Shown one piece after another: positions 3,664 to 29,099 of a stretch of 64,000 nt of DNA; the first letter of the stretch is position 1, and each line of letters starts with the position of its first letter. Source of the DNA: Acholoe squamosa (Eukaryota > Annelida > Polychaeta > Phyllodocida > Polynoidae). The position numbers and the translations under genes were made by a program. The stretch covers positions 12,834,395-12,898,394 of the forward strand of contig OX439049.1 of NCBI GenBank assembly GCA_949317995.1, read 5' to 3'. The notes under the pieces were generated by a model. That model had not been told where the DNA came from, ran no database searches, and saw only the letters and a program-made list of their open reading frames with translations.

Positions 3664-3739
3664 GCTTTTGTCGACGGACCGTTACAAGTCATGAACATGA
3701 GCAACTCAGGAGTCCGGAGAGTACAGTTGATGAATCCAC

Positions 3740-3745
3740 TTTATT
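3740..3745 (-). terminator. LTR polyadenylation signal
   Basis: AATAAA on the minus strand, about 135 bp downstream of the inferred start, so R would span roughly 3880 to 3720. In the 5' LTR it lies at 20982-20987. Confidence 0.6.
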
Positions 3746-3903
3746 GTAGTGTTAGGCAGGTACATGTTGGCATGGTGAAGTACAATGTGTATGCTGCCCA
3801 CCTGATCAAGCTAGCTCTATACCAAGGCACTGTGTGTCATGGAGACTAGGTGTGGAGAGAGGAAGGTAAAGAATAAGAGAGTATCCCAAGCTAGTCCTGT
3901 ATT

Positions 3904-3914
3904 CATATATATAG
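3904..3914 (-). promoter_or_regulatory. LTR TATA box
   Basis: Run of alternating TA which on the minus strand reads CTATATATATG, 21 bp downstream of the nearer CRE. The equivalent position in the 5' LTR, which would drive the genomic transcript, is 21146-21156. Confidence 0.65.
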
Positions 3915-3933
3915 GAGCAGCTCGGGGTAGGCA

Positions 3934-3970
3934 TGACGTCAGTCTTGGGAGAAGCATGACGTCATGCTTA
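3934..3970 (-). promoter_or_regulatory. Paired CRE/ATF sites in U3, one inside an 18-bp palindrome
   Basis: TGACGTCA, the full CREB/ATF consensus, occurs at 3934-3941 and 3957-3964. The second is the centre of a perfect 18-bp palindrome (3953-3970). Both lie about 20-50 bp upstream of the TATA box in the sense direction. The same sites are in the 5' LTR at 21176-21183 and 21199-21206. Binding by CREB/ATF is inferred from the motif. Confidence 0.7.
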
Positions 3971-4338
3971 GGGATTGGCAAGACCCGGTGTGCCTTGCAT
4001 CATCTCACCCTGGAGGGGGGGAGGGGGCTTGCCTAAAGGTGGGTCGAGCTGCCCACCTGTTGGAGGAGCAGCTCGATCCCTGATTGGCTAGGAACGGAGG
4101 TGGGTGTGAGCACACTCCCACCCCGTACCTAGGGTTTAGCGGGGGTCGAGGTCATGACCCCTAGCCAGGATCCGGAGGTGAATCTGAGGTCACTGGCCAG
4201 GAGAGGCAGAGCTGGGTAGAGATACCTGGCTCTGTCAGATCCAAAGGTTTGGTGTAAGGGAGCCTTATAGGCGAGCTTGATCATTCGGCTTAAAATATTT
4301 CATATAATAATTAATGAACCTTGAATACCCCATTGACA

Positions 4339-5301: not shown

Positions 5302-5821
5302 CTAGTACTTAAATTTTCTCAATTTCGTGCCAATGCTACTTGGTGGTAAGTTGTAGTGTTCCATGGGGGATCTACAGAAATGTCTTCCAGCAGCTGATCT
5401 TCTCCTCTGTTTGGCTTCCATGTTGTAGTCGTCATCAAAGGAGTCTATTCTAAATTGTGAAAAAGAGGCTTCCATGAAAGCCATGTCTCCAACCTCAGGG
5501 GAAGTTGAGGAGGAGGAGGATGAGCTGCTGTCATCAAGGGGTGGGTCGAATGTCGTGTTACTTCTTGGTGGTGGTGTTGGCTTGAAAGGATGTCTTTTTG
5601 AATTTCTGTCGATGGGCCTGAAGGTGGTAAAAGAAGGTGAACTGTGTATTGTGGCTTGTTCCTGGCTTTGATAATAAGCAAAGGGGCAAGCAAAAGTTCC
5701 TGGACCGTCCAAACATAAAGTACACAGGTTCAAGGTGGGTGGCCTGGTTGGGTGTACAGGCTTGGGGGAGAAGTAGCTGTCCTTCCAAACCGCATAGCCT
5801 GGTGGAATTGGGGTTCCAGGC
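5302..5821 (-). CDS. 3' accessory ORF, Cys- and Ser/Asp-rich, function unknown
   Basis: Frame open on the minus strand from within exon 4 to a stop at 5304-5302. It has no early ATG, so it is probably an exon. The text looks protein-like: a Pro/Thr-rich part, a CxxC...C cluster (LCTLCLDGPGTFACPF), a block of eight serines after DD, an acidic patch (FDDDY), a basic patch (KQRRR) and a C-terminal LRKFKY. Phase-2 acceptors are possible at 5821 (after CAACAG) or 5743 (after CAACCAG). Either would join in frame to a phase-2 donor (GA|GTAAGC, exon end 5959) hidden in exon 4. A regulatory protein from a multiply spliced transcript is a guess; no family is recognised. Confidence 0.4.
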
Positions 5822-5954
5822 CTGTTGGTTGCAAGACCTACTTGCGTGTAGGACCTGCCGGTGCAGCTTGTTGGGTGACTGGTGGTGTTGCTTGGGGTCC
5901 TTGGGTCTATTGGGCCGGTTGGGATGGCTTCTTGGCAGGTTTTACTAGCCCTGC

Positions 5955-6064
5955 TTACTCTTTGGTGGCACCTTCTGCTGTAGGGGCTTGGCCTGGGTCT
6001 GTAGATGGAGGCAAATCTGATCCCAGGCCGCGCTTGCCTTTGTTGCCCTTCTTCTTCGGTGGTC
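5955..6064 (-). CDS. env: Exon 4: basic C-terminal exon of the envelope transcript
   Basis: Begins after a strong acceptor (pyrimidine tract then CTGCAG, exon start 6064) and runs to a TAA at 5957-5955. Joined to the envelope donor at 8248 it continues in frame, because both sides are phase 1, and adds 35 residues beginning with a Lys/Arg-rich stretch (KKKGNKGKRG). The same exon could be joined directly to the gag leader donor at 20851, giving a tiny basic protein. A donor-like GTAAGC overlaps the last codons, so an alternative C terminus from the downstream ORF is possible. The splice is predicted, not shown. Confidence 0.5.
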
Positions 6065-6696
6065 CTGCAGACAGAGACAAGAACAGAGGGGTGTCTGACG
6101 TTAGAAACAGGTTAAAGACGTATGGTTCACAAGTTGGTCCACAAAAATACCGAATTTGACCAAAGAGGTTAATTTGTCCGTGTGTCGACCATGAAAACAA
6201 GATGCAGTAGCATTGGTATTGTAAAACTGTGGGGTGGTGGCTGTAAATTAGGGAAAAATAATTTAGTTCATGGACCTATAGTTTGTTTGTTTTGGGTTGC
6301 AGGCAGACTACGGTCAATACGGAGAAAGGACATGAGGTTAATGTTATTTTCCTTTCAACGTACAAACCTGAATGCAGAGCTCAATTTATTCACTTGGCTT
6401 AGCGCGGGTCCTGTATCCAGGGACGCTGTGGTTAGTTTGTCTTAGTTTCACCAGGTGGTGGTAGTGAGCTGGTGCTGCACCGTAATGGCGAGGAGTCGAA
6501 TAAGTTATGGGGAATAAGTACAGGTATGACCCGCTCAGATCGACTCCTACCTGTGTCGATTGCCTTGAAGGAAATTGTGTTTGAGATGATTTGAAGGAAA
6601 ATTTATTTTTGGTCGAAATGGGGGGCGGAGGAAAGAAAAATAGAGAAAAGAAAAAGAAAATTTTATCCCTCGCGCTAAATTTTTGATCCAAGGTGC

Positions 6697-6705
6697 TATA
6701 AAAAG
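6697..6705 (+). promoter_or_regulatory. Antisense TATA box
   Basis: TATAAAAAG in a GC-flanked context on the strand opposite to the retroelement genes, about 30 bp before an expected start near 6727 and 52 bp before the ATG at 6749. The spacing fits a TATA promoter. Confidence 0.45.
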
Positions 6706-6748
6706 GGGCGCTCGTTCGTCTGTGATGTCATAATGTTACATAACCAGG

Positions 6749-6822
6749 ATGGAGGTGTATGAAGTCGAGCTGGTAATGCCCAACGGCATTCTGCACCTCA
6801 CTATCACCATGTCAGGTGGATT
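6749..6822 (+). CDS. Antisense microprotein, exon 1
   Basis: The ATG at 6749 lies behind the antisense TATA box. The frame stays open for 24 codons and two bases, up to a clear donor (ATT|GTAAGT, 6823). Without splicing the next codons give TAA at once. Two earlier ATGs (6725 and 6734) open very short frames, so this start is not the first in the transcript. With exon 2 the product would be 43 residues. No family recognised. Confidence 0.35.
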
Positions 6823-6922
6823 GTAAGTATTTTCTGACCTCAAGGGTGATTATGGATTTTGCGAATTGGCTTATTCAAAACGTGGAGCCTTGGTTTAATA
6901 TGACTTTTAATTTGTATTTCAG

Positions 6923-6981
6923 CATCACGCAGATCCAATGGGTGATCATCCCTCCTGGCGGGGCGATCAATGGCTATTGAG
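6923..6981 (+). CDS. Antisense microprotein, exon 2
   Basis: Starts after a clean acceptor (TTTGTATTTCAG, ending 6922) and keeps the frame of exon 1 through a 100-bp intron. TGA falls at 6978-6980, one base before another perfect donor (G|GTAAGT, 6982), so at least one untranslated exon should follow. Possible later exons near 7100-7213 and up to the donor at 7589, and AATAAA at 8233-8238, would fit a plus-strand transcript. The peptide is hydrophobic with a PPGG turn near its end. Function unknown. Confidence 0.35.
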
Positions 6982-7312
6982 GTAAGTTCGATCTAAGCAA
7001 GTCAAAGTCTGAACATGTGCTAATGTTGTTGTTGTGGTAGAGATGCCACGTGCGGGTGTCACATGACCGATGGTAGTCATGGTGACGGCCGTGACGTCCG
7101 TCAGTTTCGGTGTTTGGAACGAAAACCAAGATGGCGCCGAGCTGCCGCGTATGGCGCGAAAGTGGTCGGGCCAGACGCTGCAACCGGTGCTAATACCGAT
7201 GAACATTAATGTAAGCCAATCTATTGTGTTGGTTAGGTTAGCTGTGGTTATCATGCTGTTTTAGCTTAGTGTTGATAATGATGGCTGTGTGTGGGTGTGT
7301 TTTGGGCGTCTT

Positions 7313-7383
7313 TCGGGGGTTGGGGGGTTCAGTGTGGGGCGGGGGGGAGGGGGGGTAAAGGGTAGGCTAGGTGGGCGGGGGGG
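7313..7383 (+). other. G-run cluster (possible G-quadruplex)
   Basis: Several runs of four to seven guanines in about 70 bp on the plus strand, i.e. C runs on the element's sense strand. Located in the predicted envelope 3' intron and downstream of the antisense TATA box. Confidence 0.5.
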
Positions 7384-8232
7384 CGATCCCCACATAAGCG
7401 TCTTTGCGGCGTATGTGTAAAGGCTACCTGCCATCCCCACATAAGTGTGATGGTACCTTCCAAACGCTACTGACATTTGGGTATAGCCTCGGGACGGTCC
7501 AAAGTTATATGATTGTGGGGGTGGCCGGTAGTGGCTGGGTTCGGACGGTGGTCTCCGTCATGAACCGAAACTCGGCCATGTTGGAATGGTGAGTCGAAAT
7601 TTTACCTACCATAGAATATGTAATAGGCCCTCTCAGCCAGTTTGAAATTAAACACATATAGGCAGTTGGGATGCTGGGCTTCCTGGGGTTCAGGGGAGTT
7701 GATATAGTGAGCTCGGATTGCTTTGCCGCTGCCTGGGCCCGAGCTTTCTTTCTGCTATGATCTCCTGGATCGGGGAACAGTGCCGTGGCTGAATTCGCCG
7801 GGTGTTCACTATCAACGCGCGGGGACACCTGTTCTATAAATAGAGTGGGTGGTTCCCCCGTTGTTATGGTAACGGGTATACTGACAACAAACGGTTTGTT
7901 TTGGTTTAGCCAGTGCACACGTGCTCTACTGGAGTAGTTACTTAGACGAAAGTTTGATCTTGGGGGGGGTGGGGGTTGGGGCTTTGAGTGGGGTTGGGGA
8001 CCCTGGGAAGATGGTGTAAAGCAAGGGGCTCGGTGTAACCGGGCTGGGTAGTTTATGGGCCTATCCCCACATAAAAGGTGATATCCTCAGGGGTGGGGCT
8101 ATCCGGTGGATCGTTCATGGAGAGGGGTCGGGGTCTGTTTACATGATCTTAACAGGGTGCGGGGTGGCCTAATTGCCGCCTTTTTCCAATTGATGATCCC
8201 TACATGTGGCCTTGCTGTGTGTTTCTAATTAA

Positions 8233-8238
8233 AATAAA
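8233..8238 (+). terminator. Plus-strand AATAAA, possible antisense transcript end
   Basis: Single polyadenylation hexamer about 1.5 kb downstream of the antisense TATA box, overlapping the end of the envelope ORF on the other strand. Supported only by position. Confidence 0.2.
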
Positions 8239-8247
8239 TAGACTTAC

Positions 8248-10935
8248 CGCTGGGGGATGACTTTTTGGGCCTTTCATCCGATGTGGTGGGGTCAAAGAGA
8301 TATTTGTCTGAATCCGGCTGTAGCTCCAGGTTAGTGAACTTAGTGAGTTCCACTAAGCTCCTAGAGGTAGAGGGGGCTTCCATTTTGGGGCAAAGAGGGG
8401 ATCTATATCTGGTGGGTGGTGATAGCTGGGGCATTGGGACAGTGTCTGATGGTGAAAGCTGGAAATCCGGCTGTCCCTTTTCCTTGATTACCAGGGTCAA
8501 GACGTGGGGGCTGGATGTTAGGGCCTTGTGTAGCCGTAGCCTCCAGAACAGAGGGCATCTCGGGTAACGTTCCAATTTAACTTGCTTGATCTTTCCGGCG
8601 ATTATGAAGGTCACTTCCCCCTTCCACTCCACTTCCAGATGGCGGCCGAAAGGGCTAGTTAGCCGGGGCTTAGCCACCTTGGGTGCCATGATGGAGAAAG
8701 GCCACAAGTTTCTGCCAAAGATCATCCTGCCGACGACGAAATCATAGGTCCTACCCTCTGAGTGGATTTGGAGGACGAATTTTGGCATCTCCGTGATATC
8801 ATCCACTCTAGCTAGGTAGGGCCAGTGTCGCCAGCATCTCCTGGCCAGGGCGCGGGCCAGGTACAAGGCTAGGAAAACTAGGATCCAGGCCCACATGGTA
8901 TCATACCTGCCAGCCTGGTATGGAGGCTGGTATTTCTCCAGGCTGCTTTCTGCATGTGGCGAAGTTGTTGCCTGAGGCGGCCACAAGCTGCTGATGTTCA
9001 GCACTAGCTTCCTTAAGGTGTTGAACTTTGCCGCGTCCGCCATGGTTGGTGTCTTCAGCGCAATGTGCATGGTGACTAGCTGCGCCAGTCTCGTCACGCG
9101 CAGCTGACCGTGGCACGTGATTGCACAGCACAAGATGGCCAGTAGCGGGGACAGAAGATGTAACCAGGGGGAATATTCCAGATGGTAGCCAAGATGCATT
9201 AATGTATTTACTGACAAGAAGGGTCTTGACTTGGTCAAACCTAGGGCGGCTTTCCTGAGGGCTATTACTTCTTTAAATATGGGCAATAATCTTTGGTTGT
9301 GGAGGTGTTTTAGATATTCAAAATTTGGTAGATCTAGGGTCCGGGGAATGGTTGTCATGGTGACGCCTGAAACATTGGCTGGTGGGTTGCCAAAATGGCG
9401 CCATAGAGGGAGGTTGATGGGTATCCTGACGAAGGGCCGTAATGTGGTGTTATGTATGCAGGAAAGATTTGAATTTATCATTATCATCCCAGCATTTCTA
9501 ATTGAGCACATGCATGGTACTGATATTACTGAAGAGGCTGCATTTTTAAGCTCAATTTGGCCTTCATTGGGGCATAGCATAAGTGAGGGCGATTCATTGG
9601 TAACTAATAGGTAGTCTGAGTGTGATATAGACTTAACTAAGCGTGGAATGGGGGCGGACATGTGTGCAGCAAAGCTGCATGTGTGGTGTACTGCGTCTGG
9701 TGTGTCTAACAGTAGTGACAGGGAGCATGTGGGGTTTAGGGGTGATAACAAAGGTAGGGGCCGGTCACAACTGATAAAGGTATCGTGTGTACACAGGTCC
9801 ATGTCGGCTTGTTGTAGCTCAATGTAGTGTGAGTGTGTTGGTGGTAATGCTATGAACGGGGGTAGTTTTTGTAAAAGGGTGTATCCTATTGAGTGGGGGT
9901 TGGAGGTATCGAAGGGGATGGGGAAGGTTTCTGTTCTATATATGGAATAGGTATTTTCCCCTAGACCTATGGGTACCGGTATGGTTATAAGTAATGTGGT
10001 ATTATCATTCCACTGTGCTCTAACTTTCCTTTTGTAGTAGAAGTCTACCGGTAATTTCAGAATATTTATTTCTGGGTGGTTGCTACTGAGGGCGTCTGAA
10101 AGGTTATTCAGTCCTATTTCTAATGTGTCGTGTGGGATGAGGGTGAGGGGTAGCTCGCCCTCCATGAGTGAATTTAGAGCAGATAATAGGTTGCTTAAGT
10201 CATCATGGAGATCGATGAGTGATTCTATTTGTGGATTTGCGGCCGAGAATAGCATTGAGTAGAAGGTATCCTGTTTGGTTTGTGATTCCAAATTTAGAAA
10301 AATGTCAGAAAGATTTGAGTCTAAATTTTGAAATCTATTTGCTAACAGTGATAAGGCGTCATCTGTGTCATTTTGGAATTCTGAGAAGGCGGTGAGTGTG
10401 TGATAATTATATTCTGACATATTTAAAAGGAAATGTGTGGCTAGTTCCACTACATGCATTTTGGTAGCGAATCTTTTGTCCAACTCTGACATCTCTGAAT
10501 TTAGGATATCAATTTCAGGCTGTGTTCCCAAACCTACCAGGATTCTCAGGATATCTCCTATGGGCTGGCCTGGGGCATTTCTTGGATATCTCATGGTGGG
10601 CGTGCTTACAATTTTGATTAGGTCATTCAGTAGGGTCTGTGATTTGTAGAAAAGGTTATCTAACATGTGATCCAAGTTTGTGGCTGTTTGGGTTATGTAT
10701 GGGGGTGCGCTGGGTTTCACTAGTGGAGAGATATTGTCTGGTTTTCTGAGGGGCTGGTCTAGGGTCAGGTTTAGGCTTAATACTAGTGGGTAATCCATGT
10801 AGTTGGAGAGGAGGGGTTGGTCCATTTTTGTAAAAATCACTCCAAAATTTGGTCTGAAGATGGTCCTTTGGTTAGATTCCTGGTGTACCAATCCGACAGT
10901 TGTGGCTAGGATTGCTGCTAGGGTAGTCATCAGGA
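8248..10935 (-). CDS. env: Envelope-like F-type glycoprotein, main exon
   Basis: Long ORF (901 codons from the internal ATG at 10930, to a stop at 8227-8225 if unspliced). Order along the ORF: hydrophobic leader (3-16); a minimal furin site RYPR (114-117); a Gly/hydrophobic fusion-peptide-like segment (124-135); a long heptad-rich region (140-255); a Cys-rich ectodomain (380-490) with several NxS/T sites; a hydrophobic segment (589-606); a second one (679-695); then about 200 residues of tail. This order resembles the baculovirus F / errantivirus Env family (class I fusion proteins), which is my inference. The exon starts after a poly-T acceptor (CTGCAG, exon start 10935) and ends at donor G|GTAAGT (8248). 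Joining to the gag leader would put a basic residue right before the hydrophobic leader, giving a good signal peptide. The two hydrophobic segments and long tail are unusual. Confidence 0.75.
9351..9364. promoter_or_regulatory. X-box-like motif, one of three
   Basis: GTTGTCATGGTGAC here, GTAGTCATGGTGAC at 7073-7086 and GTTGTTATGGTAAC at 7860-7873 resemble the RFX-factor X-box (GTNRCC...RGYAAC). Inside env the motif also encodes protein, so chance or protein constraint may explain it. Confidence 0.2.
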
Positions 10936-11021
10936 CTGCAGCCCTAAAAAAAAAAAATTTTTAAAGAATATGTAGGGTCTTAGAAAAATGATTTTGAAAA
11001 AGACATGAGGGAGCGGCGGTT

Positions 11022-11043
11022 TGTGTGTGTGTGTGTGTGTGTG
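11022..11043 (+). repeat. (GT)n microsatellite
   Basis: About eleven GT units followed by a G run, inside the short predicted intron between exon 2 and the envelope exon. Confidence 0.9.
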
Positions 11044-11222
11044 GGGGGGGTATTGCATTGGGTGCTTGTTTGTGTGTGGGGGGTTATGTGTGGGGTGTTG
11101 GTGAGATAAAAGGTTTGGAGGAAACAGGGGTGTGGGTTAGGGTGGTGTCTTTGTATGACCTTGGTTAGTAAGGTGTTAAAGATAATTGTAAGAAATATAA
11201 TATGTGAATGTAGGTAGCTTAC

Positions 11223-11747
11223 CCCTGCGTGAGTCTAAGCCGGGTACTTGGAGCCGGAAATATCTGGACCTGCCTGACCAGTGATACCATTCAAAGATGG
11301 CCTGTTGGAGAACCAGATCTATCGAATCGTTGATTGCTAGACTTCTGCCTACACTTGTAAAGTGTCTAGGCAGGTTAGCTAGCGGCTTCTCTGAAGCCAG
11401 GAGCGTCCTTGCGCTCAATAGGGCTAAGTAACTAGCCACATGCTGGTCAAACCTCGCCCAGATAGGTTTAGTGGGTGTGTCAGAGCACACCATAGTGAGT
11501 ACTGTTTTTATCACAGCTTGAACGCGATCATTGGTTAAGTCCATCTGCTTTAATACAGCAGGATTTGTCAAATAGAAAGCCACGTCACAGGGAGATATTC
11601 CCAGGACCAAGTTCCTATACCGGCAGATCAGAGATCTTAATTCAAGGATTTCTCTATCAGCGTCCAATAATCCCTCAGGACCCAATAGGTCATGTATGGT
11701 CCAGCAATCAATGGTATCCAATCTGTGGTTTGGAAAGAAATCAAATT
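11223..11747 (-). CDS. 174-codon accessory exon (exon 2), function unknown
   Basis: Open frame between an acceptor (CCCTGCAG, exon start 11747) and a donor (GG|GTAAGC, exon end 11223), both phase 1. There is no in-frame ATG near its start, so it depends on splicing. The gag-leader donor at 20851 would supply the AUG in frame. At its end it can splice in frame to the envelope exon (287-nt intron), or stop at 11178-11176 if the intron is kept. The product is rich in Leu/Ala helices with an aromatic/basic end (FEWYHWSGRSRYFRLQ). It may be a separate accessory protein or a long envelope leader. No family recognised. Confidence 0.5.
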
Positions 11748-13179
11748 CTGCAGGGTAAGTCTACCTGTGTAATAGTTTTTGGTTGAGTGTATTTGAGATA
11801 TTAGGTTCACACGAGATGGAGGATTCAGCAGGCACAAATATTGGGCAGTGAAGAGTGAAGATCATTCAACTTTTTCTAGATACTCTGAGCTCACACTACC
11901 ATTGGTGAATTGAGGAGTCTGGGCAGTATGACAACAAATATGTCATTACCAAATACAAGAACGACTGATGGTCTATGTACTAAAATGGACACTTAAGACA
12001 GGCCTACCTGGGCTGGCTGCATGCCCTGTTCGCCATGGTTGTCTCCAATCAGGCACTTGCTCTCAGAAAAACGGGAAGTGGTTGGAGATGGTGTATTATT
12101 GAGAATGGATAAGATTGGGGTGGGTCAAGGCTTATAAACCTGGTCGTGAGGGAAGCTAACCCTCAGTCGCAGATCTCCCATATAGGTATGTCTTGCCCTT
12201 AAAAGGCTTGGCCTTATCTTATTGGATGAATGCAGTGGGGGCAGGCCTGCCCCGTATGCAAATCTCTGGTGGTCTCTGCGCTGAGGCCTGGTATGTATTG
12301 ATTAAAAATTGGAATTTTTAGGTCAAGAAGGTTGGTAGATGCTGGTCAAGGTTATGATTGACCTCTGACCGGGTGGGTTTGCCTGCTTTGTGGAAGCCTG
12401 GCGTGAAATTGGGGCTGTGGTTGATTACAGCCAATCAGAAAGGTATTCCACCTGCATTACCGGATCTGAGAAAAACAGGGGTGCAAACATGGTTGGAGCA
12501 TGGGAGACAGGGACTCCTACAGTAGGCGTGTCGGTGGCAAGAATACCGAATTTAACAGGAGTCCTGACAAGCCATCAAGCCGGTGTATGAATGTATAAAA
12601 TAAAAATTTTATACATATACCCTAGAATGCGCTGCTGCCTTGGGTAGTATATGTGGCGTATCGAACCATTAAATGTGGGTGTGCTGAAGGCGTCCATGGG
12701 CGCGGAAAAACTAAATCTCCAAGACTCATTTCAGTGTTATGTAACTTTCATACAACGTATGACAAAAAGGAAAAAGGGTGTATTGGTGTTTTTGAGAAGA
12801 AAAGAAAAAGAAAAAGAAAAAAATTGATGAATAGAAAACAGGAAAAATAAAATAAAAGATCTGGGATGGGGGTTGGGTGTTGGGAGGTTTCTGGGAGGTG
12901 GTCAGTATTTGGTGTTGGACAGGTGGCGCGTGGGGTGCTGGGTGTAATGTGGTTGGTATGTATGTGCTCTGAGGGTAATGTGTTTGGCAAATTAAGTGGG
13001 GGGGGGCGGTGGTGGATGCGGATTTCTGCACTTGATCAGGGATCAAGGTGTAGGCACGTGGTGGTTATCCAGATCACTGGTGCATAGGATGGAGGTATGT
13101 TTGACTTGCAGTGTATTTGGTTGTGGTGTTTTGGGGGGGGCTGTGCTTTTTGGTGTGTGAGAGTGTGTAGTTTGCGTAT
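11748..13179 (-). other. Untranslated spacer between integrase and exon 2
   Basis: No sense ORF of note. Contains an A/G-rich run on the plus strand (12795-12830), an acceptor for exon 2 at its low-coordinate end and AT-rich patches near 12588-12615. Confidence 0.5.
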
Positions 13180-13920
13180 TTATTTTTGCTGATGGCGCTT
13201 TTTAGCCTTTTTTGGTGGTGAGAAACTGACAATACCCTTTTTGGCTGGTCTCCCTCTCTTTCTTTTTGGTGGGGGAGTGGGGGTATTGGTGGAAGGTGTT
13301 AAGTTCAAGTCTGGGTCGTAGAGAGATAAAACCGGGCCAGTCTGTAGTCTTTTGACTATGGCTTTGGCGCTGGCTTTGGATGTTGGTGTTCTCAATCTGG
13401 ACACATGTACTGCTTTTTTGAAAACTTTGCCATCCTGCAATCTTTTGACGATTGCAGTTACTAATGAGGTCATTTTCACGATGATATATGGGCCAGAGTA
13501 GGTAGGCTGCAGCTTTTTACTTGTGTGTTTTACCAGCAGGTTGGGAATGTGTAAATACACGAGCTGACCTGTGGCATATGTACTAAGTTCTGCTGAGGCG
13601 TCGTGTTTTGCCTTCATCTTTTTGTGAACTTTGATCATGTTTTCTGCTGCCTTCAATTGAATATCATCCCTGAGGTTGAGCAAATGTAGGGCCATACCTT
13701 CCCTTTGTTTGGTATCACTTAGTGATGTGCCTAGTGCTAGGGCTGCTTCTGTTGGTAAGTGAGATTGTTTGCCAAATACCAAAAGATTTGGTGAGTAGCC
13801 CAGAGCGCTGGAGACTGTATTGTTCATGCTGAAAATTACAGCCTGTAAGAAGGTGGACCAGTGTTTTTGTGATTTTGACACAAAAGCTCTCAGGGAGGAT
13901 TCAATAGTCTGGTGCTGGCG
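13180..13920 (-). pseudogene. pol: Integrase C-terminal part, frameshifted from the rest of pol
   Basis: In the -1 frame relative to upstream pol. It continues the catalytic core helix (QHQTIESSLRAF), then a GPY/F-type module (YSGPYIIVK) and a basic tail with an AT-hook-like KRGRPAK and NLS-like Lys/Arg clusters (PPKKAKKR). The join to the upstream frame is disrupted by one extra base at 13921, directly after the codon for the catalytic Glu (13924-13922). The tail has no recognisable chromodomain; the AT-hook-like motif may serve in chromatin targeting, which is inference. Confidence 0.8.
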
Positions 13921-15334
13921 CCTCACATAGAGCTTGTGATCGGCTCCAATGTGCTGACCCTGTGACATGTTTAATGCCAAATTTCTTGCAGAAAAGTGCA
14001 AAGAATTTTGAGGTGAATTGTTTGGCATTATCAGTGTTAAGTACTGAAGGTGTACCGTGGATGCAAATGACTCTTTGGAAGAATCCAAGTGCCACAATGG
14101 CGCTTGTGTTTTCCTCAGTTGACCATGCAGTGACGTGCCTAGTGGCGTGGTCTGTCACCACATGTATGTAGTGTGAGCCATCTACAGCCTTGGAGAATGG
14201 GCCTATAGTGTCCATAGTTAAATGGGAATAGGCAGTCAGTACCGGTTCACGAAGGGTCATAGGTGTTTTGAGATTTTTGGGCTTCTTTTTGGTGGTGAGG
14301 CATGCATGACATGTGCCACAAAAATCAAACACCTGTTTGAACATTGAGCGCCAGTAGTAACGTGACCTTATGGCTGCGTAGGTTTTCACTGAACCCAGGT
14401 GGCCACCTAGAGGTGAGCAGTGGGTGGATTCAATGAGGGACTCTGCCCAGATTTCTGGGATCACGATTTGTAATGTAGGATCCAATGAGTGGCCCATTAC
14501 AGTATCTGTGATCCTGAAAAGAACCTCGTCAAGAATGATGAACTGATCATGGTTTCTTAGAATCTGATTTATCAAACCAGAGTCATGTGGCAATTGACCT
14601 TTTTCAATGTAATTTAGCATGGATGAGGCAAAAAGGTCTTTTTGTTGAGCCTCAATTAATGCTTCTCTTGATGGGGTGAGGGAGTGATGTTTGCAAATTT
14701 TGGTGATGGCACTCTCAGCTATAGGTAAAACCTTCTGAGATAACTTGACCCTTCTAGCATTGGCGGCCTTCACTGAAACCCTGGGTGACCTGGGCGCACT
14801 GGGTCGACCCCTTGACCTAGTTGTGGTGGATTTGACCTTCTTAGGTCGGGTCGGCTTGGTGTGCTTGGTGCTGGGTTCTGATTGGCCGATGGTCGGGGGT
14901 GTGTCTTGTGTGTTCCGGGACTGGGCCCTGGTCAAGACGCATAGCTCTGAATATCCCTTGGGTGTTTTAGAATATATTCTTTCAGAGCTATTTTTCTTTG
15001 CAACTACTCCTCTTGGTAATTTTCCTGTGCTTCCCCAAATTCTTCCTCCCTTTAGTATCGATCTGGGAGGTCCCATTAAGACAGGGTTATTTGGTACTGG
15101 CGCGTTTGATTTAAAAACCTTGGTCATGGTAATATCAGAGAAAGTCACTTTCTTAGGGGGGAGGATGATCTGTCCCTTTGATCTTATTGGTACTGGATCA
15201 TCAGAGCTTGGTGAGTATTTCCTCCTGGAGAGGAAATCAGCCACAATGTTGGCTCTGCCCTGCAGGTACTTTACTTCAAAATCATATGACATGACTGTAT
15301 CCACCCATCTAGCCAATCTTCCATTTGTGATATT
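13901..15334 (-). pseudogene. pol: RNase H end and integrase core
   Basis: Same frame as the PR-RT part, separated from it by one UAG (15337-15335). It starts with the last RNase H residues and a connection (RLARW, VADFLSRR), a basic linker with an AT-hook-like RSRGRP near 14800, the integrase zinc region (HCSPLGGH and CGTCHAC, about 14430-14290) and the DDE core. Asp lies near 14208 (TMDTIGPF), Asp near 14032 (TDNAKQF) and Glu at 13924-13922, with exactly 35 residues between the last two, as in retroviral and Ty3/gypsy integrases. Beyond Glu the frame is lost through a one-base insertion and ends at 13903-13901. Confidence 0.85.
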
Positions 15335-17698
15335 CTATTTTTTATTAAAAAGAGAGACTAGGGCTGTATGGTCTGAATACACTTTGAAGTGGGTTCCATC
15401 CACATAGTGGTGGAATTTCTTTACCGCATAGACAATACCTAAGAGTTCCTTGTCTGTTATACCGTATCTGGTTTCTTGAGGGGTCAAACCTCTTCCTGCA
15501 AATTCTATTGGCCTGTAGAAACCATGTTCATCAACCTGAGTGATCACGGCTCCCAGGCTGTAATTGCTTGAGTCAGTGAAAATCACAAAAGGCTTCCTGT
15601 AATCAGGGAATTTGAGGATGGCTTCCGTGCAGATTGAGGCCTTGATTTTCTCAAAGGCTCTTTGACAGTCTGCGGTCCATGCAAAAGCACTCTTGGTGGC
15701 ATCGTAGAGTGGCTTCATTATGTGGGCAAAACCCTTAATGAATCTTTTGTAGAATTGTGCCATACCATTGAAACATCTAAGGTCATGGATGTTTTTGGGT
15801 GGTGGGAAGGTTTTGACTGGCCAGATTTTGTCTGGGGAAGGTGACACACCATGCTGGTCTACAGAAAAACCCAAGAAATCCATCTTGGTTGTGCCAAATT
15901 CACATTTTTCAGATTTCAGTTTGATATTTCCCTTTATGAAAAGTTTGAGTACCTCATCTAGATCTTGTAGATGTCTCTCCCAGGTGGGACTGTATATAGC
16001 TACATCATCGACGTAGGCTACAGCGTTTCTGTATTTACATTTCATGAGCAGCTGTTCCATAACATTCATGAAGGATAGGCCTGATGTTTTGAGTCCCATG
16101 GGCAATACTTTTGCCATGTATCTGGTTCCATTTGCAGAGAAGGTGGTGATAGGTCTGGATTCTTCCGCTAGGGGGATCTGGTGGTAGGCGCTGTAGACAT
16201 CTAATTTAGAGAAAAACTTGGCGCCTGTTCTACCAATTTGCTGCATGAGATCGTCTGCCCTTGGGAAGGAATATGAAAAGGACTTGAGGTTTTGGTTAAC
16301 CCATCTGTAGTCCACTACAATCCTCCATCCTGATGCTACAGATCTGTCACCTTGGGGTTTTGGTACCAAGAAGGCTGGGGAGTTCCACTCACAAGGCTTT
16401 GTACATTCCTCAATTACTCCCTGCTTCAGGTGTTTCTCCAGGAGCTCTCTTTGAAAAATCTCCTTGTGTGGGGACATTCTGTATGACGGTCTGTTACAGG
16501 GTTTGAAGTCTGGGATCAGTTCAAGTTTGATCTCATTCTCTACATTTAGACCGATAGCACTGTCATTAAGTACAAAGGCCTGCCTGTTTTCTTCAACAAT
16601 ATTGCGGATTTGCTCCTTCTGTTTGTCATTGAGCTGCTCACAGATTTTATACTTTAGAGGCTCGTTGCTTTTAGGGAGCTGTTGCAATGGATCATCCCCA
16701 CAATTAATTGGGAAAAGATCTTTGGCAGATCTGCTGTCCTTTTTTGAAGGCTGCTGGTCTTCAAGGGAACCTATGGGCACAGCTTTTTCGATATTGAAAA
16801 GCTTGAAGGTACCTAGGGTGGTATGTCTTTTCAATGGTACGGGAAAATCATTTGGATTTGCCATAGTTACCGGTATTAATTTTGACTCTGTCTTGGGTTT
16901 AACCAAGGCATGTTTGATCAGTATTGGTAATCTGAGACCAATGTTTTCAGTGATGCCTGTTGAGTTGATAATGTCCTGTGGCCCAGCTACAAAGGCATTT
17001 AGAGTTGCCTCAGAATTTGGTGGGATAATTGAATCTTCAGTAGGTCTGATTGGGTACCCTATGGGAGGTTTTGGTCTGAAACTGAGCCTGGCCTTGTATT
17101 TGGTCATAAAGTTTACGCCAAGGATGAGTGGGTGGTTCAGTTTGGGGACAATATGGAATTTACAAGAGAATTCTGCTCCCTGAATCAAGAATTTTAGTGT
17201 TATTGAGTTGTTTACCTGTACTGAGGATTTGTCTGCTAGGAGTACAACAAGTCTGGATCTGTTACCGTGAAGGAAGTTAGGGCTGTTTGACACTCTATCT
17301 GCCATTTTCTGACTGATGAAAGATAGGGAGGCACCTGAGTCTATCAATGCTCTGTATAGATGGTCATTTATGTCGACAAACACAGATCCCTTAGTCAAAT
17401 CAGTATTAATGTAAGAGACCTTACCTTGCTGCCCATACTTATCTGTTCTGATCCTGAGTCGCAGTCTGGTCACCCTCCTGCTGTCGTCCTCACAGCAGTC
17501 CTCACTGTCTGAAGATGAGCTGTAATCCAGCTTTGGTTGGAATTTAATTTTGTTTTTGCTGGTAGGGGGCCGTAGTGAATTGAGTTCTGCATCACTGTGA
17601 ACACCGGTAGGTTGATGGCGTGTGGGGGGCGTTCCAGGTTTCTTTTTCGCTGAGGTGGGGGCGGGGTTGCTAGGTGCAAGGTAGCCTTCCCCCGAAAC
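15335..17698 (-). CDS. pol: Pol: protease, reverse transcriptase, RNase H (N part)
   Basis: Opens directly after the Gag UAG (17701-17699) in the Gag frame; it has no ATG of its own near the start, so it should be made by readthrough as a Gag-Pol fusion. In order: a Pro/Lys-rich spacer, an acidic Ser stretch, an aspartic protease (LIDSGASLSFIS, near 17345-17310), reverse transcriptase with the AYVDDVAIYS active site at about 16020-15990, and RNase H with FTDSSNYSLG, KELLGI and YSDHTALV carrying the catalytic Asp/Glu/Asp. The layout and motifs are Ty3/gypsy type. The frame is 787 codons and stops at UAG 15337-15335 inside RNase H, where related proteins read on, so this is probably a point mutation. 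Confidence 0.9.
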   Translation of the reverse strand, partial: VSGEGYLAPSNPAPTSAKKKPGTPPTRHQPTGVHSDAELNSLRPPTSKNKIKFQPKLDYSSSSDSEDCCEDDSRRVTRLRLRIRTDKYGQQGKVSYINTDLTKGSVFVDINDHLYRALIDSGASLSFISQKMADRVSNSPNFLHGNRSRLVVLLADKSSVQVNNSITLKFLIQGAEFSCKFHIVPKLNHPLILGVNFMTKYKARLSFRPKPPIGYPIRPTEDSIIPPNSEATLNAFVAGPQDIINSTGITENIGLRLPILIKHALVKPKTESKLIPVTMANPNDFPVPLKRHTTLGTFKLFNIEKAVPIGSLEDQQPSKKDSRSAKDLFPINCGDDPLQQLPKSNEPLKYKICEQLNDKQKEQIRNIVEENRQAFVLNDSAIGLNVENEIKLELIPDFKPCNRPSYRMSPHKEIFQRELLEKHLKQGVIEECTKPCEWNSPAFLVPKPQGDRSVASGWRIVVDYRWVNQNLKSFSYSFPRADDLMQQIGRTGAKFFSKLDVYSAYHQIPLAEESRPITTFSANGTRYMAKVLPMGLKTSGLSFMNVMEQLLMKCKYRNAVAYVDDVAIYSPTWERHLQDLDEVLKLFIKGNIKLKSEKCEFGTTKMDFLGFSVDQHGVSPSPDKIWPVKTFPPPKNIHDLRCFNGMAQFYKRFIKGFAHIMKPLYDATKSAFAWTADCQRAFEKIKASICTEAILKFPDYRKPFVIFTDSSNYSLGAVITQVDEHGFYRPIEFAGRGLTPQETRYGITDKELLGIVYAVKKFHHYVDGTHFKVYSDHTALVSLFNKK

Positions 17699-17701
17699 CT
17701 A
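17657..17701 (-). promoter_or_regulatory. Gag-Pol UAG readthrough site with downstream stem
   Basis: UAG at 17701-17699 separates Gag and Pol in one frame. Five bases later the RNA has GGGGG (17693-17689), complementary to C runs at 17666-17663 and 17661-17657. Between them a small hairpin can form (AAGG 17688-17685 with CCUU 17681-17678). Gammaretroviruses use a UAG followed by a structured element in the same way; by analogy this is a programmed readthrough signal. Confidence 0.6.
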
Positions 17702-18874
17702 TTCATTGTCATTTGTATCGTGGCCATCCTCCTCATGGTCATCCTCTTCTGGGTTGCTGTCCATGTTATTGAGGTTGGCTTCACTCTCTGATTCAGAGGT
17801 GTATTTATTTTGGTCCCTTTTAGGGTATCTGCCAGGGGTTCTGTCTCTGGGTTTTCTTTTGGCCTGAGATATGTCATCAGTGATGGTGAAAACAGAGGGG
17901 ACCACGAGTTTCTTGAAGGAAACTTGATTGTTGTCAGTGGGGGTGGTGGCCACAGGGATGAAAAATACGTTCCTGTTGCTGTCACTGGACTGGGATCTCC
18001 TGTAGTTACTTGGAGAAGTGCCCCTGTTGTTGTAGGGCTGGTTGTTTCTGTTGTAAGACTCGGATCTGTCGCCAGAAGGGGTTCTAAATCTGGTCCTCCT
18101 GTTGTTGGGGTCAGATTGGCTGTTAAAACCACTTCTGTACTTGGCTTCATATTGCTTGCTGTAGCTACCACTGGGGAGTCTGTCTTCCTTCTTTTGGTTG
18201 TTATTTTGGTAGTTGTCCTTTCTGGATCTCTGATAGTTATTTTTTGTGTTGTTGTTCTTGTTATTATTGTAGCTGTTGTTGTGGCCCATGGCGCAGAGAT
18301 CTGCTGATTGGCTGGAGGCCTGGGCAATGCTGTTTGCTTCTATGTTCAGCTCCTGCTTGAGTGCTAAACGTTCAACGTCAGCTATTTTCTCAGGAGTGTC
18401 GGACAGAACCACGTTTTTGATTTCTGGTCTGAGGCCATTTAGCAGGTAGTCTACCTGAACGGATTCATCTAGGTTACTGTTGGCCAGCAGTAGAGTCATG
18501 TCTGAGATATAATCCTCTACAGACTCTTTTGGTTGCTGTTTTCTGGTCCTGTACCCTTTAATGATAGTTGCAGGGTCAAGCTGGCCAAAACGCTTCAGGA
18601 AGGCTGTGTAAACGGCTTCTGCGTCATAGATGATGGGTTTATCAAATATGTTGGCGTAGAACCATTGAGCAGCTCTGCCTTTGAGGAAGGTGTACATACA
18701 TGATGCATGTAGGTCTGGTCTAGTGGCGTGGACGTTCCTGATCCAAAATTTGAATTCTGCTATGAATTTGGAGGCAGATCTGTATGGAGATGGTTTGTCA
18801 AAAGGCTCAGGTTTGTTGAATGAGCTCATTTGTACTGAGGTGAGTTTGTCATGATTGAAGCTTATGTTACCCAT
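17702..18874 (-). CDS. gag: Gag capsid-type protein (391 aa)
   Basis: Starts at ATG 18874, which has A at -3 and G at +4. Residues about 20-165 look like a retrotransposon Gag capsid: KFWIRNVHATRPD, GRAAQWF, FLKRFGQL, ESVEDYI and LLNGLRPEI occur in the usual order. The rest is low in complexity: Asn/Lys/Arg/Gln-rich (180-300), then Ser-rich, ending in a very acidic tail (EEDDHEEDGHDTND). There is no CCHC zinc knuckle; RNA binding may rest on the Asn/Arg-rich part. It is in frame with the preceding 648-codon ORF, from which it is parted by UGA and 13 codons, and with pol, which follows its UAG. Confidence 0.85.
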
Positions 18875-18913
18875 ACTTCCAGTGACGTGTGCAGGTGCCT
18901 GTGGGTATGGGGT

Positions 18914-18916
18914 TCA
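18914..18916 (-). other. In-frame UGA between the two Gag ORFs
   Basis: The 648-codon ORF, this UGA, 13 further sense codons and the capsid ORF share one frame. Readthrough would give a single large Gag. Reinitiation at the well-placed ATG 18874, or a recent nonsense mutation, are alternatives. The following base is A, not the CUA of strong UGA readthrough sites, and I see no downstream stem. Confidence 0.5.
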
Positions 18917-20860
18917 GTATTGGCCTGTCGCACTCATTGTTGTTGGAGTGTGTGAGTGCAGGGTCTGCATAGGGATGGGCTGGTGGTTGGGGGTTTGCCC
19001 TTGAGGTGAGTAGTATACACCCTTGTAAACCGAGCCCAGGCTTGGTCCAGCGGCTGGTTGCCTCTGAGATGGCGCTCCTGCTGCCATCTGGTGTGAAAAA
19101 GGGATACTACCCATTCTGTCTTGGCTCTGATGGTGAGAAAAGGGCGTGGCACCTGTAACACCTCGAGCTGTGTTGTCTTGAAAAGCGCAGGGTGGTGTCA
19201 AAGTGTTCCCTGGTGTGAGGGCTGTTGGGTTTGAACTACCAGTTGTTCTGTTTACTCCCTGTTGGAGACCATGTTGTTGTTGGCCTTGAGGGGGATTTGT
19301 TGGGTTGGATAGGCTTGGTGCTGGAGGAGGCGCTGTTTGTTGCTGGTCAAGTATTCTGAAGATGTCTGACTTCATGTCGTCAAGATTTCTGGCGATCCTG
19401 TCATAGATTTCCGCAGTCATAGCTTCAGTCTGCTTTAGGGTAGCTTCACTCCTTTCTACTGCAGATCTGTGGACAGCTGTCATGCCGCGCTCCATATTTG
19501 ATTTCCAAGTGTCCATTGTATCCAGTCTGTCATTCACCCTGGAGAGCTGTTCTGCAGTGCTGCTTCCAATCCTTCTGATTTCAGTGGAGATAAGGCTGAT
19601 TTGACCGGCTAGTTCATTAGATAATGTATCACTGACAGCTGCAGTGCACTCTCTTATGATGTCTCTGGTCATAGCTTGGGTGTCGTTTGGTGGGGGTTGT
19701 GCAGAGGACATGTTTCTGGTGTTTTTGTGTCTGTTGAGATGTGGGAAGGTTATCTCTGGATCTTCCTCTGATGTGCTGGAGCTGGTTAGTGTGTTGTTTG
19801 GTAATTGTGGCGTTGTGTTGAACACACTAGATGTAGCTCTGATGTTCCCCCTGATGGCGTTATCTACACTCCTATCAAGTCTGTAATATGGGGTTCTGCT
19901 TCTAGGTCTAGGTGAGCAGGACCTGGCTCTTTTCCTGGGGCTAGGGTCTAGGGTGTGCAGGGGCAGGGAAAAGTATGATGTATTCCTGCTGCTGGCGCCG
20001 GATGACAGGTTATCAGAAGTGGCAATGCCTTCTGGGTTAGAAGGATTGTAGTATGTGCTAAAACAATCAGTGGGTGGTCTTGAGCTAGGCCACTCTTCGT
20101 ATAGCAGATTGTTGATTCTGGCTGCGAAGGCTGAGGGGGATTCCTCGGATTGGCTGCTCCGAAAACTGCAGGGGTTTACCTCTACAGCTCGTCCTACAGC
20201 GTGGCTTGGTGCTAGTCTCCACCTGGCGAAAGCTGACCTTATTCTCTCTCCCCAGTAATCAGCGTCAAGCTGTGTAGGTGTATTTGGTTCTTGGACTATA
20301 TAGTTGTCCCAAGTCAAGTCAGTAGGACTGGTGTTTACAGAGTTTGTTGAGGATGGGCCAGTACTGGTATTGTGCTGCTCGGGGTGAGTGGGGATGCTTT
20401 CCAAAGCGGCTTGTAGGTGGGGTGATCTGGCTTCCAGGTGGGAGTCAAGTTCTAGGTGGCTCGGTGTGTGGCACACAGGTGAGGTGGTAATATTGCCTGG
20501 TATTCCAGCAAGTCTTAAAGATGGAGAGTCTGAGGCAGACAGGCCAGGTAATGTTAGATTTAACTCTGGGGCAGGTGATGCCACTGGTGTACTGGTCTGT
20601 CCTCCAGTATTGTCTCCAATATGAGTGGGTGAAAAGGTGGTTTTTGTTTTACTCACAGGTGTTGATTTTTGTAGAGATGCTGGTAATATTGGGTCTAGAG
20701 TCAGTGCATCAGGTGATGAGTCTCTCTGGGTGGGTTCCTGATTTGGTGTTGCTTCTGCTGCTGCTGCTGCTGCTAGCTGGTTTTGGGTCGTGTCTCGTCC
20801 CGGTGTTGTAATGGCACGTTCAGGAGTTGGCTCTTTGGGCGTTGTCTCACTTTTATTCAT
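18914..20860 (-). CDS. gag: Gag N-terminal ORF (648 aa), Pro/Ser/Thr-rich with coiled coil
   Basis: First ORF after the primer site; ATG at 20860 only 50 nt from the LTR. The first 380 residues are Pro/Ser/Thr-rich with an alanine run (20757-20774 in the DNA is a GCT repeat). A better-folded patch lies near 180-270 (DYWGERIRSAFARW, FAARINNLLYEEW). Residues about 400-500 form a heptad-rich coiled coil (LISTEIRRIGSSTAEQLSRVNDRLDTMDTW). The end is Gln/Pro/Gly-rich. It stops at UGA 18916-18914, in frame with the capsid ORF. It may act as a matrix-like assembly domain or a separate product; no family recognised. Confidence 0.75.
   Translation of the reverse strand: MNKSETTPKEPTPERAITTPGRDTTQNQLAAAAAAEATPNQEPTQRDSSPDALTLDPILPASLQKSTPVSKTKTTFSPTHIGDNTGGQTSTPVASPAPELNLTLPGLSASDSPSLRLAGIPGNITTSPVCHTPSHLELDSHLEARSPHLQAALESIPTHPEQHNTSTGPSSTNSVNTSPTDLTWDNYIVQEPNTPTQLDADYWGERIRSAFARWRLAPSHAVGRAVEVNPCSFRSSQSEESPSAFAARINNLLYEEWPSSRPPTDCFSTYYNPSNPEGIATSDNLSSGASSRNTSYFSLPLHTLDPSPRKRARSCSPRPRSRTPYYRLDRSVDNAIRGNIRATSSVFNTTPQLPNNTLTSSSTSEEDPEITFPHLNRHKNTRNMSSAQPPPNDTQAMTRDIIRECTAAVSDTLSNELAGQISLISTEIRRIGSSTAEQLSRVNDRLDTMDTWKSNMERGMTAVHRSAVERSEATLKQTEAMTAEIYDRIARNLDDMKSDIFRILDQQQTAPPPAPSLSNPTNPPQGQQQHGLQQGVNRTTGSSNPTALTPGNTLTPPCAFQDNTARGVTGATPFSHHQSQDRMGSIPFSHQMAAGAPSQRQPAAGPSLGSVYKGVYYSPQGQTPNHQPIPMQTLHSHTPTTMSATGQY
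20851..20860 (-). CDS. Shared leader exon and splice donor in the gag ORF
   Basis: Three codons and one base after the gag ATG lies a donor-like AAAA|GTGAGA (exon end 20851, GT at 20850-20849). Phase 1 matches the acceptors at 11747 (exon 2), 10935 (envelope) and 6064 (exon 4), so all three can be translated from the gag AUG. Avian sarcoma-leukosis virus env uses its gag AUG in the same way. Confidence 0.55.
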
Positions 20861-20891
20861 GGCTCATGAGAGGTGGTAACAATGGAATCTT

Positions 20892-20909
20892 CAGAGGGGT
20901 TCTCCACCA
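20892..20909 (-). other. Candidate primer-binding site
   Basis: One base inside the 5' LTR the sense strand reads TGGTGGAGAACCCCTCTG, starting with the TGG complementary to a tRNA CCA end. I could not assign the tRNA. Confidence 0.5.
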
Positions 20910-20910
20910 T

Positions 20911-21580
20911 TGTCGACGGACCGTTACAAGTCATGAACATGAGCAACTCAGGAGTCCGGAGAGTACAGTTGATGAATCCACTTTATTGTAGTGTTAGGCA
21001 GGTACATGTTGGCATGGTGAAGTACAATGTGTATGCTGCCCACCTGATCAAGCTAGCTCTATACCAAGGCACTGTGTGTCATGGAGACTAGGTGTGGAGA
21101 GAGGAAGGTAAAGAATAAGAGAGTATCCCAAGCTAGTCCTGTATTCATATATATAGGAGCAGCTCGGGGTAGGCATGACGTCAGTCTTGGGAGAAGCATG
21201 ACGTCATGCTTAGGGATTGGCAAGACCCGGTGTGCCTTGCATCATCTCACCCTGGAGGGGGGGAGGGGGCTTGCCTAAAGGTGGGTCGAGCTGCCCACCT
21301 GTTGGAGGAGCAGCTCGATCCCTGATTGGCTAGGAACGGAGGTGGGTGTGAGCACACTCCCACCCCGTACCTAGGGTTTAGCGGGGGTCGAGGTCATGAC
21401 CCCTAGCCAGGATCTGGAGGTGAATCTGAGGTCACTGGCCAGGAGAGGCAGAGCTGGGTAGAGATACCTGGCTCTGTCAGATCCAAAGGTTTGGTGTAAG
21501 GGAGCCTTATAGGCGAGCTTGATCATTCGGCTTAAAATATTTCATATAATAATTAATGAACCTTGAATACCCCATTGACA
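20911..21580 (-). repeat. 5' LTR of the giant element
   Basis: 670 bp, same features as the 3' LTR; T instead of C at 21415 is the only difference found. In the sense direction this copy carries the promoter, with CREs (21176-21206) and TATA box (21146-21156). Confidence 0.95.
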
Positions 21581-21584
21581 CTTT

Positions 21585-28728: not shown

Positions 28729-29099
28729 GAGGCTGTTGCTCCTATAGTAAAAGGAAGAGCTGGCTAAAAATGCCCTCATTGCCAGTCCTTTCTTTTCATG
28801 TAGCTATAACTTGTCCCTTTTGTTGCTCACAAGTGGTCATTCAAGTACCGTGCTCAAAAAGGGGGATTTGAGTAGGTGCCTAGTTGGGAGAAGTCAGTCA
28901 GTACTATAAACTATAAATAAACTATAGAGCGTGTGACATGAGTAGGTACCTGGTAGTGCAGCTCTATCTATTTTAAACAAGGCAGTTGACTTTTCAGACT
29001 AATGTGGTGAGTGCAAGTACTTAGGTGAAGCAGTGCACGACTTGTTTAGAAAAGAGGGCATATACTCACAGCTCTTTTTACAATAGGAGCAACAGGCTA
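28729..29099 (+). mobile_element. MITE family A, copy 2
   Basis: Same family as 1716, opposite orientation. Starts GAGGCTGTTGCTCC and ends with the complement, with CTG on both sides (28726-28728, 29100-29102). Confidence 0.85.

What the first reader, a model, noticed from the sequence alone, without database searches (positions are those of the whole stretch)
5955..20860. One leader donor in gag matches three phase-1 acceptors (complex-retrovirus-like splicing)
The donor at 20851|20850, three codons and one base into gag, joins in frame to acceptors at 11747, 10935 and 6064. The internal donors at 11223 and 8248 are also phase 1. Every combination keeps the frame. Joining to the envelope exon puts a basic leader residue before a hydrophobic stretch, giving a classic signal peptide that the envelope exon lacks alone. 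This could yield gag-pol, an accessory protein, Env and a small basic protein from one AUG.
Basis: partly seen in the sequence, partly recalled or inferred. Interest (0 to 1): 0.9.

Follow-up and report, generated by a model that had tools for sequence, protein, structure and literature searches.

The report
Env-bearing Ty3/gypsy provirus with candidate splicing
This is a recently inserted, partly broken virus-like jumping gene whose sequence suggests that its envelope and extra proteins are made by splicing, but one of the proposed splice products is probably read in the wrong frame and no RNA evidence was available.

Summary
The finding lies in a 17.9-kb Ty3/gypsy-type (Metaviridae) provirus on the minus strand: LTRs with one mismatch in 670 bases, a 4-bp target-site duplication, gag, protease, RT, RNase H and integrase, then an orphan 911-codon envelope-like ORF. 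All six splice sites exist at the stated coordinates. By a consensus score, 6064, 10935, 8248 and 11223 rank among the best sites of the element and strong sites sit at ORF edges more than chance gives (24 of 16,570 rotations). Donor 20851 is moderate and acceptor 11747 weak. The phase claim holds by arithmetic for the leader, the 175-codon exon and the envelope exon. The envelope exon also has its own ATG at its second codon. Splicing of an envelope exon from within gag is known in insect Ty3 elements, and Cer1 makes a spliced export factor. The multi-exon plan here is a plausible variant, untested by RNA or sister copies: the genome search did not complete (25 tries). This copy is defective in gag-pol.

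The parts
20911..21580 (-). 5' LTR; TATA-like sequence near 21155, AATAAA at 20987
   Evidence: one mismatch to 3669-4338 over 670 bases (671-base match); motifs located
3669..4338 (-). 3' LTR
3665..3668 (.). target-site duplication, CTTT on + strand (other copy 21581-21584)
20892..20909 (-). candidate primer-binding site (begins TGGTGG), one base after the 5' LTR
   Evidence: sequence and position; matching tRNA not identified
18914..20863 (-). gag N-terminal ORF (ATG at 20860, 648 codons from it), ends at an in-frame TGA
   Evidence: no Pfam domain over cut-off
20850..20851 (-). leader splice donor, phase 1, AAAA|gtgaga
   Evidence: score 3.4, rank 14 of 588 internal donors
17699..18913 (-). 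gag capsid/nucleocapsid ORF, 404 codons, ends at in-frame TAG
   Evidence: Retrotrans_gag 24.9 bits, cut-off 24.1
15335..17698 (-). protease, RT and RNase H; ends at TAG inside RNase H
   Evidence: RVT_1, RT_RNaseH_2, gag-asp_proteas; relatives P0001 and P0002 read on past this point
13901..15334 (-). integrase zinc-binding and core; frame broken between about 13901 and 14154
   Evidence: Integrase_H2C2, rve
13180..14154 (-). rest of integrase in another frame, SH3_Tf2-1-like C-terminus
   Evidence: SH3_Tf2-1 24.6 bits, below the 30-bit cut-off
11223..11747 (-). candidate accessory exon, 525 nt, phase 1 at both ends; ORF itself runs 11760-11176
   Evidence: acceptor score -2.4, rank 197 of 1100; donor 5.0, rank 7 of 588; codon score reached by 15 of 425 non-coding stretches
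10936..11222 (-). candidate short intron, 287 nt
   Evidence: codon scores near or below zero in its three frames
8248..10935 (-). envelope exon, 2688 nt, phase 1 at both ends; ORF to stop at 8225-8227; own ATG at 10930
   Evidence: acceptor rank 4, donor rank 2; 2 hydrophobic 19-residue segments over 1.4, 12 N-x-S/T sites, RYPR at residue 115; no homologue found
6065..8247 (-). candidate intron, 2183 nt
   Evidence: length; codon scores negative in all three frames of 8224-6065; longest open run 193 codons, reached by 49 of 1000 shuffles
5302..6064 (-). candidate 3' exon: best acceptor of the element; phase-2 frame open 252 codons; phase-1 frame stops at 5955 after 35 codons
   Evidence: rank 1 of 1100; ORF length 0 of 1000 and 1 of 1000 shuffles; codon score 0 of 329 non-coding stretches

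Best explanation
A young, full-length insertion of an env-bearing Ty3/gypsy (Metaviridae) element. Unspliced RNA encodes Gag and Pol. Spliced RNAs carry the first ten coding bases of gag (from the ATG at 20860 to donor 20851) joined to downstream exons. The best supported junction is 20851 to 10935, which starts Env at the gag AUG. The 3' exon at 6064 is a real exon whose main product is a protein of about 250 residues in the frame that is phase 2 at 6064, not the 35-residue basic peptide; how that frame is entered is unresolved (another donor such as 8907 or 20238, a further exon, or a length change in this copy). The 175-codon exon (11747-11223) is an accessory exon with a weak acceptor, used alone or as an N-terminal addition to Env. 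Shown: LTRs, duplication, domains, sites, phases, ORF and codon statistics. Inferred: every junction, the use of the AUG, all functions of the 3' proteins.
For: LTRs and duplication; Pol domains and RT closest to Ty3 among solved structures; tree with P0001-P0005; site ranks and rotation test; only the gag ATG reads through 20851; missing early ATGs in the accessory and 3' ORFs; coding-like phase-2 frame of the 3' exon; non-coding gap 8224-6065; precedents.
Against: No RNA and no sister copy seen. 20851 is only moderate and 11747 weak. Seven ATGs lie between the likely start of transcription and the gag ATG, three of their frames ending on a TGA that overlaps it. Env could start at its own ATG at 10930. 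A higher-scoring leader donor without the gag ATG exists at 21044. The strongest donor of the element is 17425 inside pol, which the scheme does not use. The long frame of the 3' exon is out of phase with the three named donors, and the phase-1 frame also scores well over its 35 codons.
Confidence: 0.55

Rival explanations
1. Env is spliced from a non-coding leader donor (for example 21044 in the LTR) and starts at its own ATG at 10930; the gag AUG and its phase play no part.
For: Env exon has an ATG at its second codon, before the hydrophobic stretch; donor 21044 scores higher (4.9) than 20851 (3.4).
Against: The accessory and 3' ORFs have no early ATG; the ATG at 10930 has no purine at -3 (read); the phase-1 agreement of four sites would be chance.
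Confidence: 0.2
2. The 175-codon exon is not a separate protein but an N-terminal leader of Env: 20851-11747, 11223-10935, with the hydrophobic stretch acting as an internal signal, as in retroviruses with long Env leaders.
For: 11223 and 10935 are both strong, in the same phase and 287 nt apart. A lentiviral Env (FIV) has a signal peptide of 175 residues (PMC10128041, title and abstract start in search listing; the title gives it a role against tetherin).
Against: 11747 is weak, so skipping is likely; the ORF also runs on past 11223 to its own stop at 11176; no homologue.
Confidence: 0.2
3. The sites are by-products of a stop-poor strand with many chance consensus matches; only gag-pol and Env are real genes, and the 3' ORFs are chance.
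For: 11747 is rank 197 of 1100; the accessory ORF length is reached by 14 of 1000 shuffles and its codon score by 15 of 425 non-coding stretches; other high-scoring sites, such as donor 17425 and acceptor 15858, lie inside pol.
Against: Rotation test 24 of 16,570; 3' frame 0 of 1000 shuffles of 6300-5000 for length and 0 of 329 for codon usage.
Confidence: 0.15
4. One reading: all three acceptors used from 20851 in phase 1, with the 35-residue basic peptide as a separate product.
For: Phase arithmetic; the phase-1 frame scores well over its 35 codons (1 of 631 non-coding stretches as high).
Against: All three frames are open there and phase 2 stays open and coding-like for 252 codons.
Confidence: 0.15

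Closest known systems
Insect errantiviruses / iERVs (gypsy, ZAM, idefix, springer subclades)
   Same: Ty3/gypsy element with env downstream of integrase and Env made from a spliced RNA; in the idefix subclade env is spliced from within gag, in gypsy the start codon is made of AT from the gag side and G from the env side (PMC12992720 and PMC2585583, passages seen)
   Different: Here the donor gives three full gag codons plus one base, two more candidate exons exist, the internal region is 16.6 kb, and Env gives no Pfam match
Cer1 of C. elegans with its spliced CERV protein
   Same: Ty3/gypsy element with a large gag region before the capsid and an accessory protein from a spliced RNA that shares its 5' end with gag; CERV is needed for export of the genomic RNA (PMC10309623, abstract and passages seen)
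   Different: CERV is a five-exon product whose exons 1-3 are in the gag frame; no sequence link to this element was tested
Alpharetroviruses such as Rous sarcoma virus (recalled; two searches gave no passage on it)
   Same: Env starts at the gag AUG and first gag codons through a donor just inside gag
   Different: A retrovirus; here Pol is of Ty3 type
Bdelloid rotifer LTR elements with additional ORFs
   Same: Family-specific third ORFs in addition to gag and pol; the paper says ORF3s typically are expressed from spliced messages (PMC5408684, passages seen)
   Different: No sequence comparison was possible; no multi-acceptor scheme in the passages seen

Membership tests
Metaviridae (Ty3/gypsy) | LTRs flanking gag and pol, with protease, RT, RNase H and integrase domains | tested here: met
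   genome plan as in the ICTV profile (PMC7879559, whole held text read)
Metaviridae (Ty3/gypsy) | RT of Ty3 type | tested here: met
   best solved-structure matches are two Ty3 entries (E about 4e-55; 7q5b is named Ty3 in the table, 4ol8 is recalled as Ty3); the next is at 1.2e-33
Metaviridae (Ty3/gypsy) | PBS and polypurine tract at the edges of the internal region | tested here: inconclusive
   TGGTGG begins one base after the 5' LTR and a purine-rich stretch precedes the 3' LTR; primer tRNA not identified
Metaviridae (Ty3/gypsy) | 4-6 bp target-site duplication, TG..CA ends | tested here: met
   4 bp, TGTC..GACA; excludes Troyka, which has 3 bp and CG ends (PMC12440569, part 1 of 5 read)
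Errantivirus | monophyletic clade in Pol | not tested
   no named errantivirus in the tree; nearest rows P0001-P0005 are unnamed
Errantivirus | baculovirus F-type Env | tested here: inconclusive
   no Pfam or PDB match; an RYPR site and the cysteines recall F proteins, from memory only
Complex retrovirus-like splicing | multiply spliced RNAs seen in cells | not testable with these tools
   no RNA data; genome search not answered (25 calls)

The most novel reading that the evidence does not exclude
A Ty3/gypsy provirus that evolved complex-retrovirus-like gene expression on its own: one gag-leader AUG feeds a set of phase-1 exon cassettes (accessory, Env, 3' tail) that can be combined freely, and the 3' exon encodes a regulatory protein that, like Rev or CERV, controls export of the unspliced RNA.
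Probability: 0.2. Interest if true: 0.75.

Novelty: new variant of a known kind. Interest (0 to 1): 0.42.

Why it matters
How elements with introns in their genomic RNA get that RNA out of the nucleus, and how they share one start codon between genes, is worked out in few cases outside vertebrate retroviruses (my judgement; Cer1 is the one I read about). If the exon plan is real, this element would be another such case, with an orphan envelope and two orphan accessory exons. The sequence makes sharp predictions that a few long cDNA reads would settle.

Tried and rejected
Sister copies: the genome search 'own' with one unchanged query (window:8300-8900) did not complete, 25 calls (11, 13, 17, 22, 25, 31, 33, 37, 42, 45, 51, 55, 57, 61, 68, 71, 73, 76, 78, 81, 83, 85, 87, 90, 92). 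Protein searches: env none, accessory ORF none, pol 132 with 120 listed; the 3' ORF was searched only in Pfam and the PDB (none).

Readthrough structure after the TAG at 17699: folding no better than shuffles (z 0.11; 103 of 200 fold as well). Troyka rejected by ends and duplication size. tRNA and Rfam: only a tRNA-Ser at 53468-53539, outside the element. Open frames of 95 codons or more outside the element were listed and not annotated further. A frame switch inside the first 110 bases of the 3' exon was considered: phase 1 scores higher at first, phase 2 later, but the stretch is too short to decide.

Searches gave no passage on gag-leader env in avian viruses, so the Rous sarcoma virus comparison is recalled. 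One search was this report with four fields in the wrong form.
Full report
What the thing is. The coordinates fall inside one complete insertion on the minus strand. A direct repeat of 671 bases with one mismatch lies at 3668-4338 and 20910-21580. Bounded by TG and CA it is a 670-bp LTR pair with one mismatch, flanked by CTTT on both sides (4 bp). The element is 17.9 kb and its internal region 16,571 bases; larger Ty3 elements are known (planarian Burro, up to 25 kb inside; PMC6431247, passages seen). Pfam finds Retrotrans_gag (17702-18913), protease, RT and RNase H (15338-17698), integrase zinc-binding and core (13904-15334) and a weak SH3_Tf2-1 tail (13183-14154, below its cut-off). Among solved structures the RT is closest to Ty3. 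In a quick tree of 121 RT-RNase H pieces (all 120 proteins held plus the window) it groups with two unnamed proteins, P0001 and P0002 (SH-aLRT 100; nearest 79% identical over 398 columns), then with P0003 and P0004 (96) and P0005 (96); the named animal proteins fall in another branch. It is therefore a Ty3/gypsy (Metaviridae) provirus. The host was not identified; that it is an animal is inferred from the element.

This copy is defective. In-frame stops stand at 18914 (TGA), 17699 (TAG) and 15335 (TAG), and the integrase frame is broken between about 13901 and 14154. The stop at 15335 cuts RNase H, and relatives P0001 and P0002 read on there. The stop at 17699 lies at the gag/protease border and might be a natural readthrough site, but the stretch from there does not fold better than shuffles. 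The near-identical LTRs mean the insertion is young, so the faults may be older than this insertion or may be sequencing errors; this was not tested.

The splice sites. All six sites are as described. I scored every GT and AG of the internal region with consensus matrices recalled from memory. Of 588 donors, 8248 is second, 11223 seventh and 20851 fourteenth. Of 1100 acceptors, 6064 is first, 10935 fourth and 11747 number 197. Sliding the ORF edges around the internal region, 37 of 16,570 rotations match the two best edge acceptors, 35 match the two donors and 24 match both; rotations by a few bases, which keep the real sites, are included. So strong sites at the ORF edges are unlikely to be chance, with two weak points: the 11747 acceptor, which does not enter that statistic, and the only moderate leader donor. 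The best donor of all, 17425 (score 8.1), lies inside pol and has no part in the scheme.

The phases. The gag ATG at 20860 is the only leader ATG whose frame runs through 20851, and it leaves phase 1. The accessory exon (525 nt) and the Env exon (2688 nt) enter and leave in phase 1. Phase 1 is also the commonest phase among donors scoring 1.5 or more in these ORFs (11 of 25), so the agreement is suggestive only. At 6064 the phase is uninformative: all three frames are open over the first 35 codons. The frame that is phase 1 ends at 5955. The frame that is phase 2 stays open for 252 codons, to 5302. Its open run is not reached in 1000 shuffles of 6300-5000, and once in 1000 shuffles of 6064-4339 and of 8224-4339; the two gap controls gave 443 of 1000 (13179-11761) and 49 of 1000 (8224-6065). 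Its codon usage scores 0.128 bits per codon against gag, pol and Env codons; 0 of 329 stretches of the non-coding parts score as high, and the highest of 108 out-of-frame stretches of the real genes is 0.076 (stretches overlap). The phase-1 frame also scores well over its 35 codons (0.196; 1 of 631 as high). Both results stand; the simplest readings are a different donor, a further exon, or a length change in this copy. I did not try to mend it.

The accessory exon. ORF 11760-11176 (194 codons) has no ATG in its first 72 codons, so it needs a start from elsewhere. Its length is reached by 14 of 1000 shuffles of 13179-11000, its codon score by 15 of 425 non-coding stretches, and none of 171 candidate proteins is a homologue. 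This is moderate support.

The envelope exon. The 902 residues from 10933 hold two 19-residue segments over 1.4 in hydropathy (at 589 and 679), twelve N-x-S/T sites and five R-x-x-R sites, two of them RYPR (115 and 789). Residues 2-16 form a further hydrophobic stretch: only 9 of 888 windows of 15 score as high, itself included. Nothing matched the protein: none of 7999 scored candidates, no PDB entry below E 0.7, no Pfam family over cut-off. The RYPR site at 115 and the spacing of cysteines recall baculovirus F and gypsy Env; that is memory, not a test.

The leader. A TATA-like sequence is near 21155 and AATAAA at 20987. If transcription starts about 30 bases after the TATA (recalled rule), seven ATGs precede the gag ATG, and three of their frames (from 20940, 20934 and 20910) end on a TGA that overlaps it. 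The gag AUG would therefore be reached by leaky scanning or reinitiation, for unspliced and spliced RNAs alike (inference).

What is known. In Drosophila elements env comes from a spliced RNA; the main env exon joins a short exon upstream of gag (ZAM and Beagle subclades), an AU dinucleotide (springer) or a site within gag (idefix) (PMC12992720, passages). In gypsy the splice makes the start codon (PMC2585583, passages). Cer1 makes CERV, needed for export of its genomic RNA, from a five-exon spliced RNA whose first three exons share the gag frame (PMC10309623, abstract and passages). Rotifer elements carry third ORFs that the authors say are typically expressed from spliced messages (PMC5408684, passages). 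A 175-residue Env signal peptide exists in FIV (PMC10128041, abstract start in listing).

Verdict. The anatomy is real. Splicing of Env from the gag leader is likely and ordinary in kind. The accessory exon is possible. Whether it adds up to a complex-retrovirus-like scheme needs RNA or sister copies, neither of which I could obtain.

Noticed in passing
18914-18916, 17699-17701, 15335-15337, 13901-14154 (minus strand): Three in-frame stops and one frame break in gag-pol of an insertion whose LTRs differ at one base in 670; the element is young but defective, or the assembly has errors.
   Followed up: partly
20940-20857 (minus strand): Three upstream reading frames (ATGs at 20940, 20934 and 20910) end on a TGA that overlaps the gag ATG (ATGA), a layout that recalls reinitiation sites.
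   Followed up: partly
17425 (minus strand): The strongest donor consensus of the whole element lies in the N-terminal part of pol, phase 1, with no obvious use.
   Followed up: no
18917-20860 (minus strand): A 648-codon gag N-terminal part with no known domain precedes the capsid; Cer1 Gag also has a large region before its capsid-like domain (PMC10309623, passage seen).
   Followed up: no
1712-2098, 28718-29103, 34692-35059, 35854-36221, 55142-55449: Copies of one dispersed repeat of up to about 380 bases (88-97% alike), in both orientations, outside the provirus.
   Followed up: no
53468-53539 (minus strand): tRNA-Ser (CGA) gene or tRNA-derived repeat.
   Followed up: no
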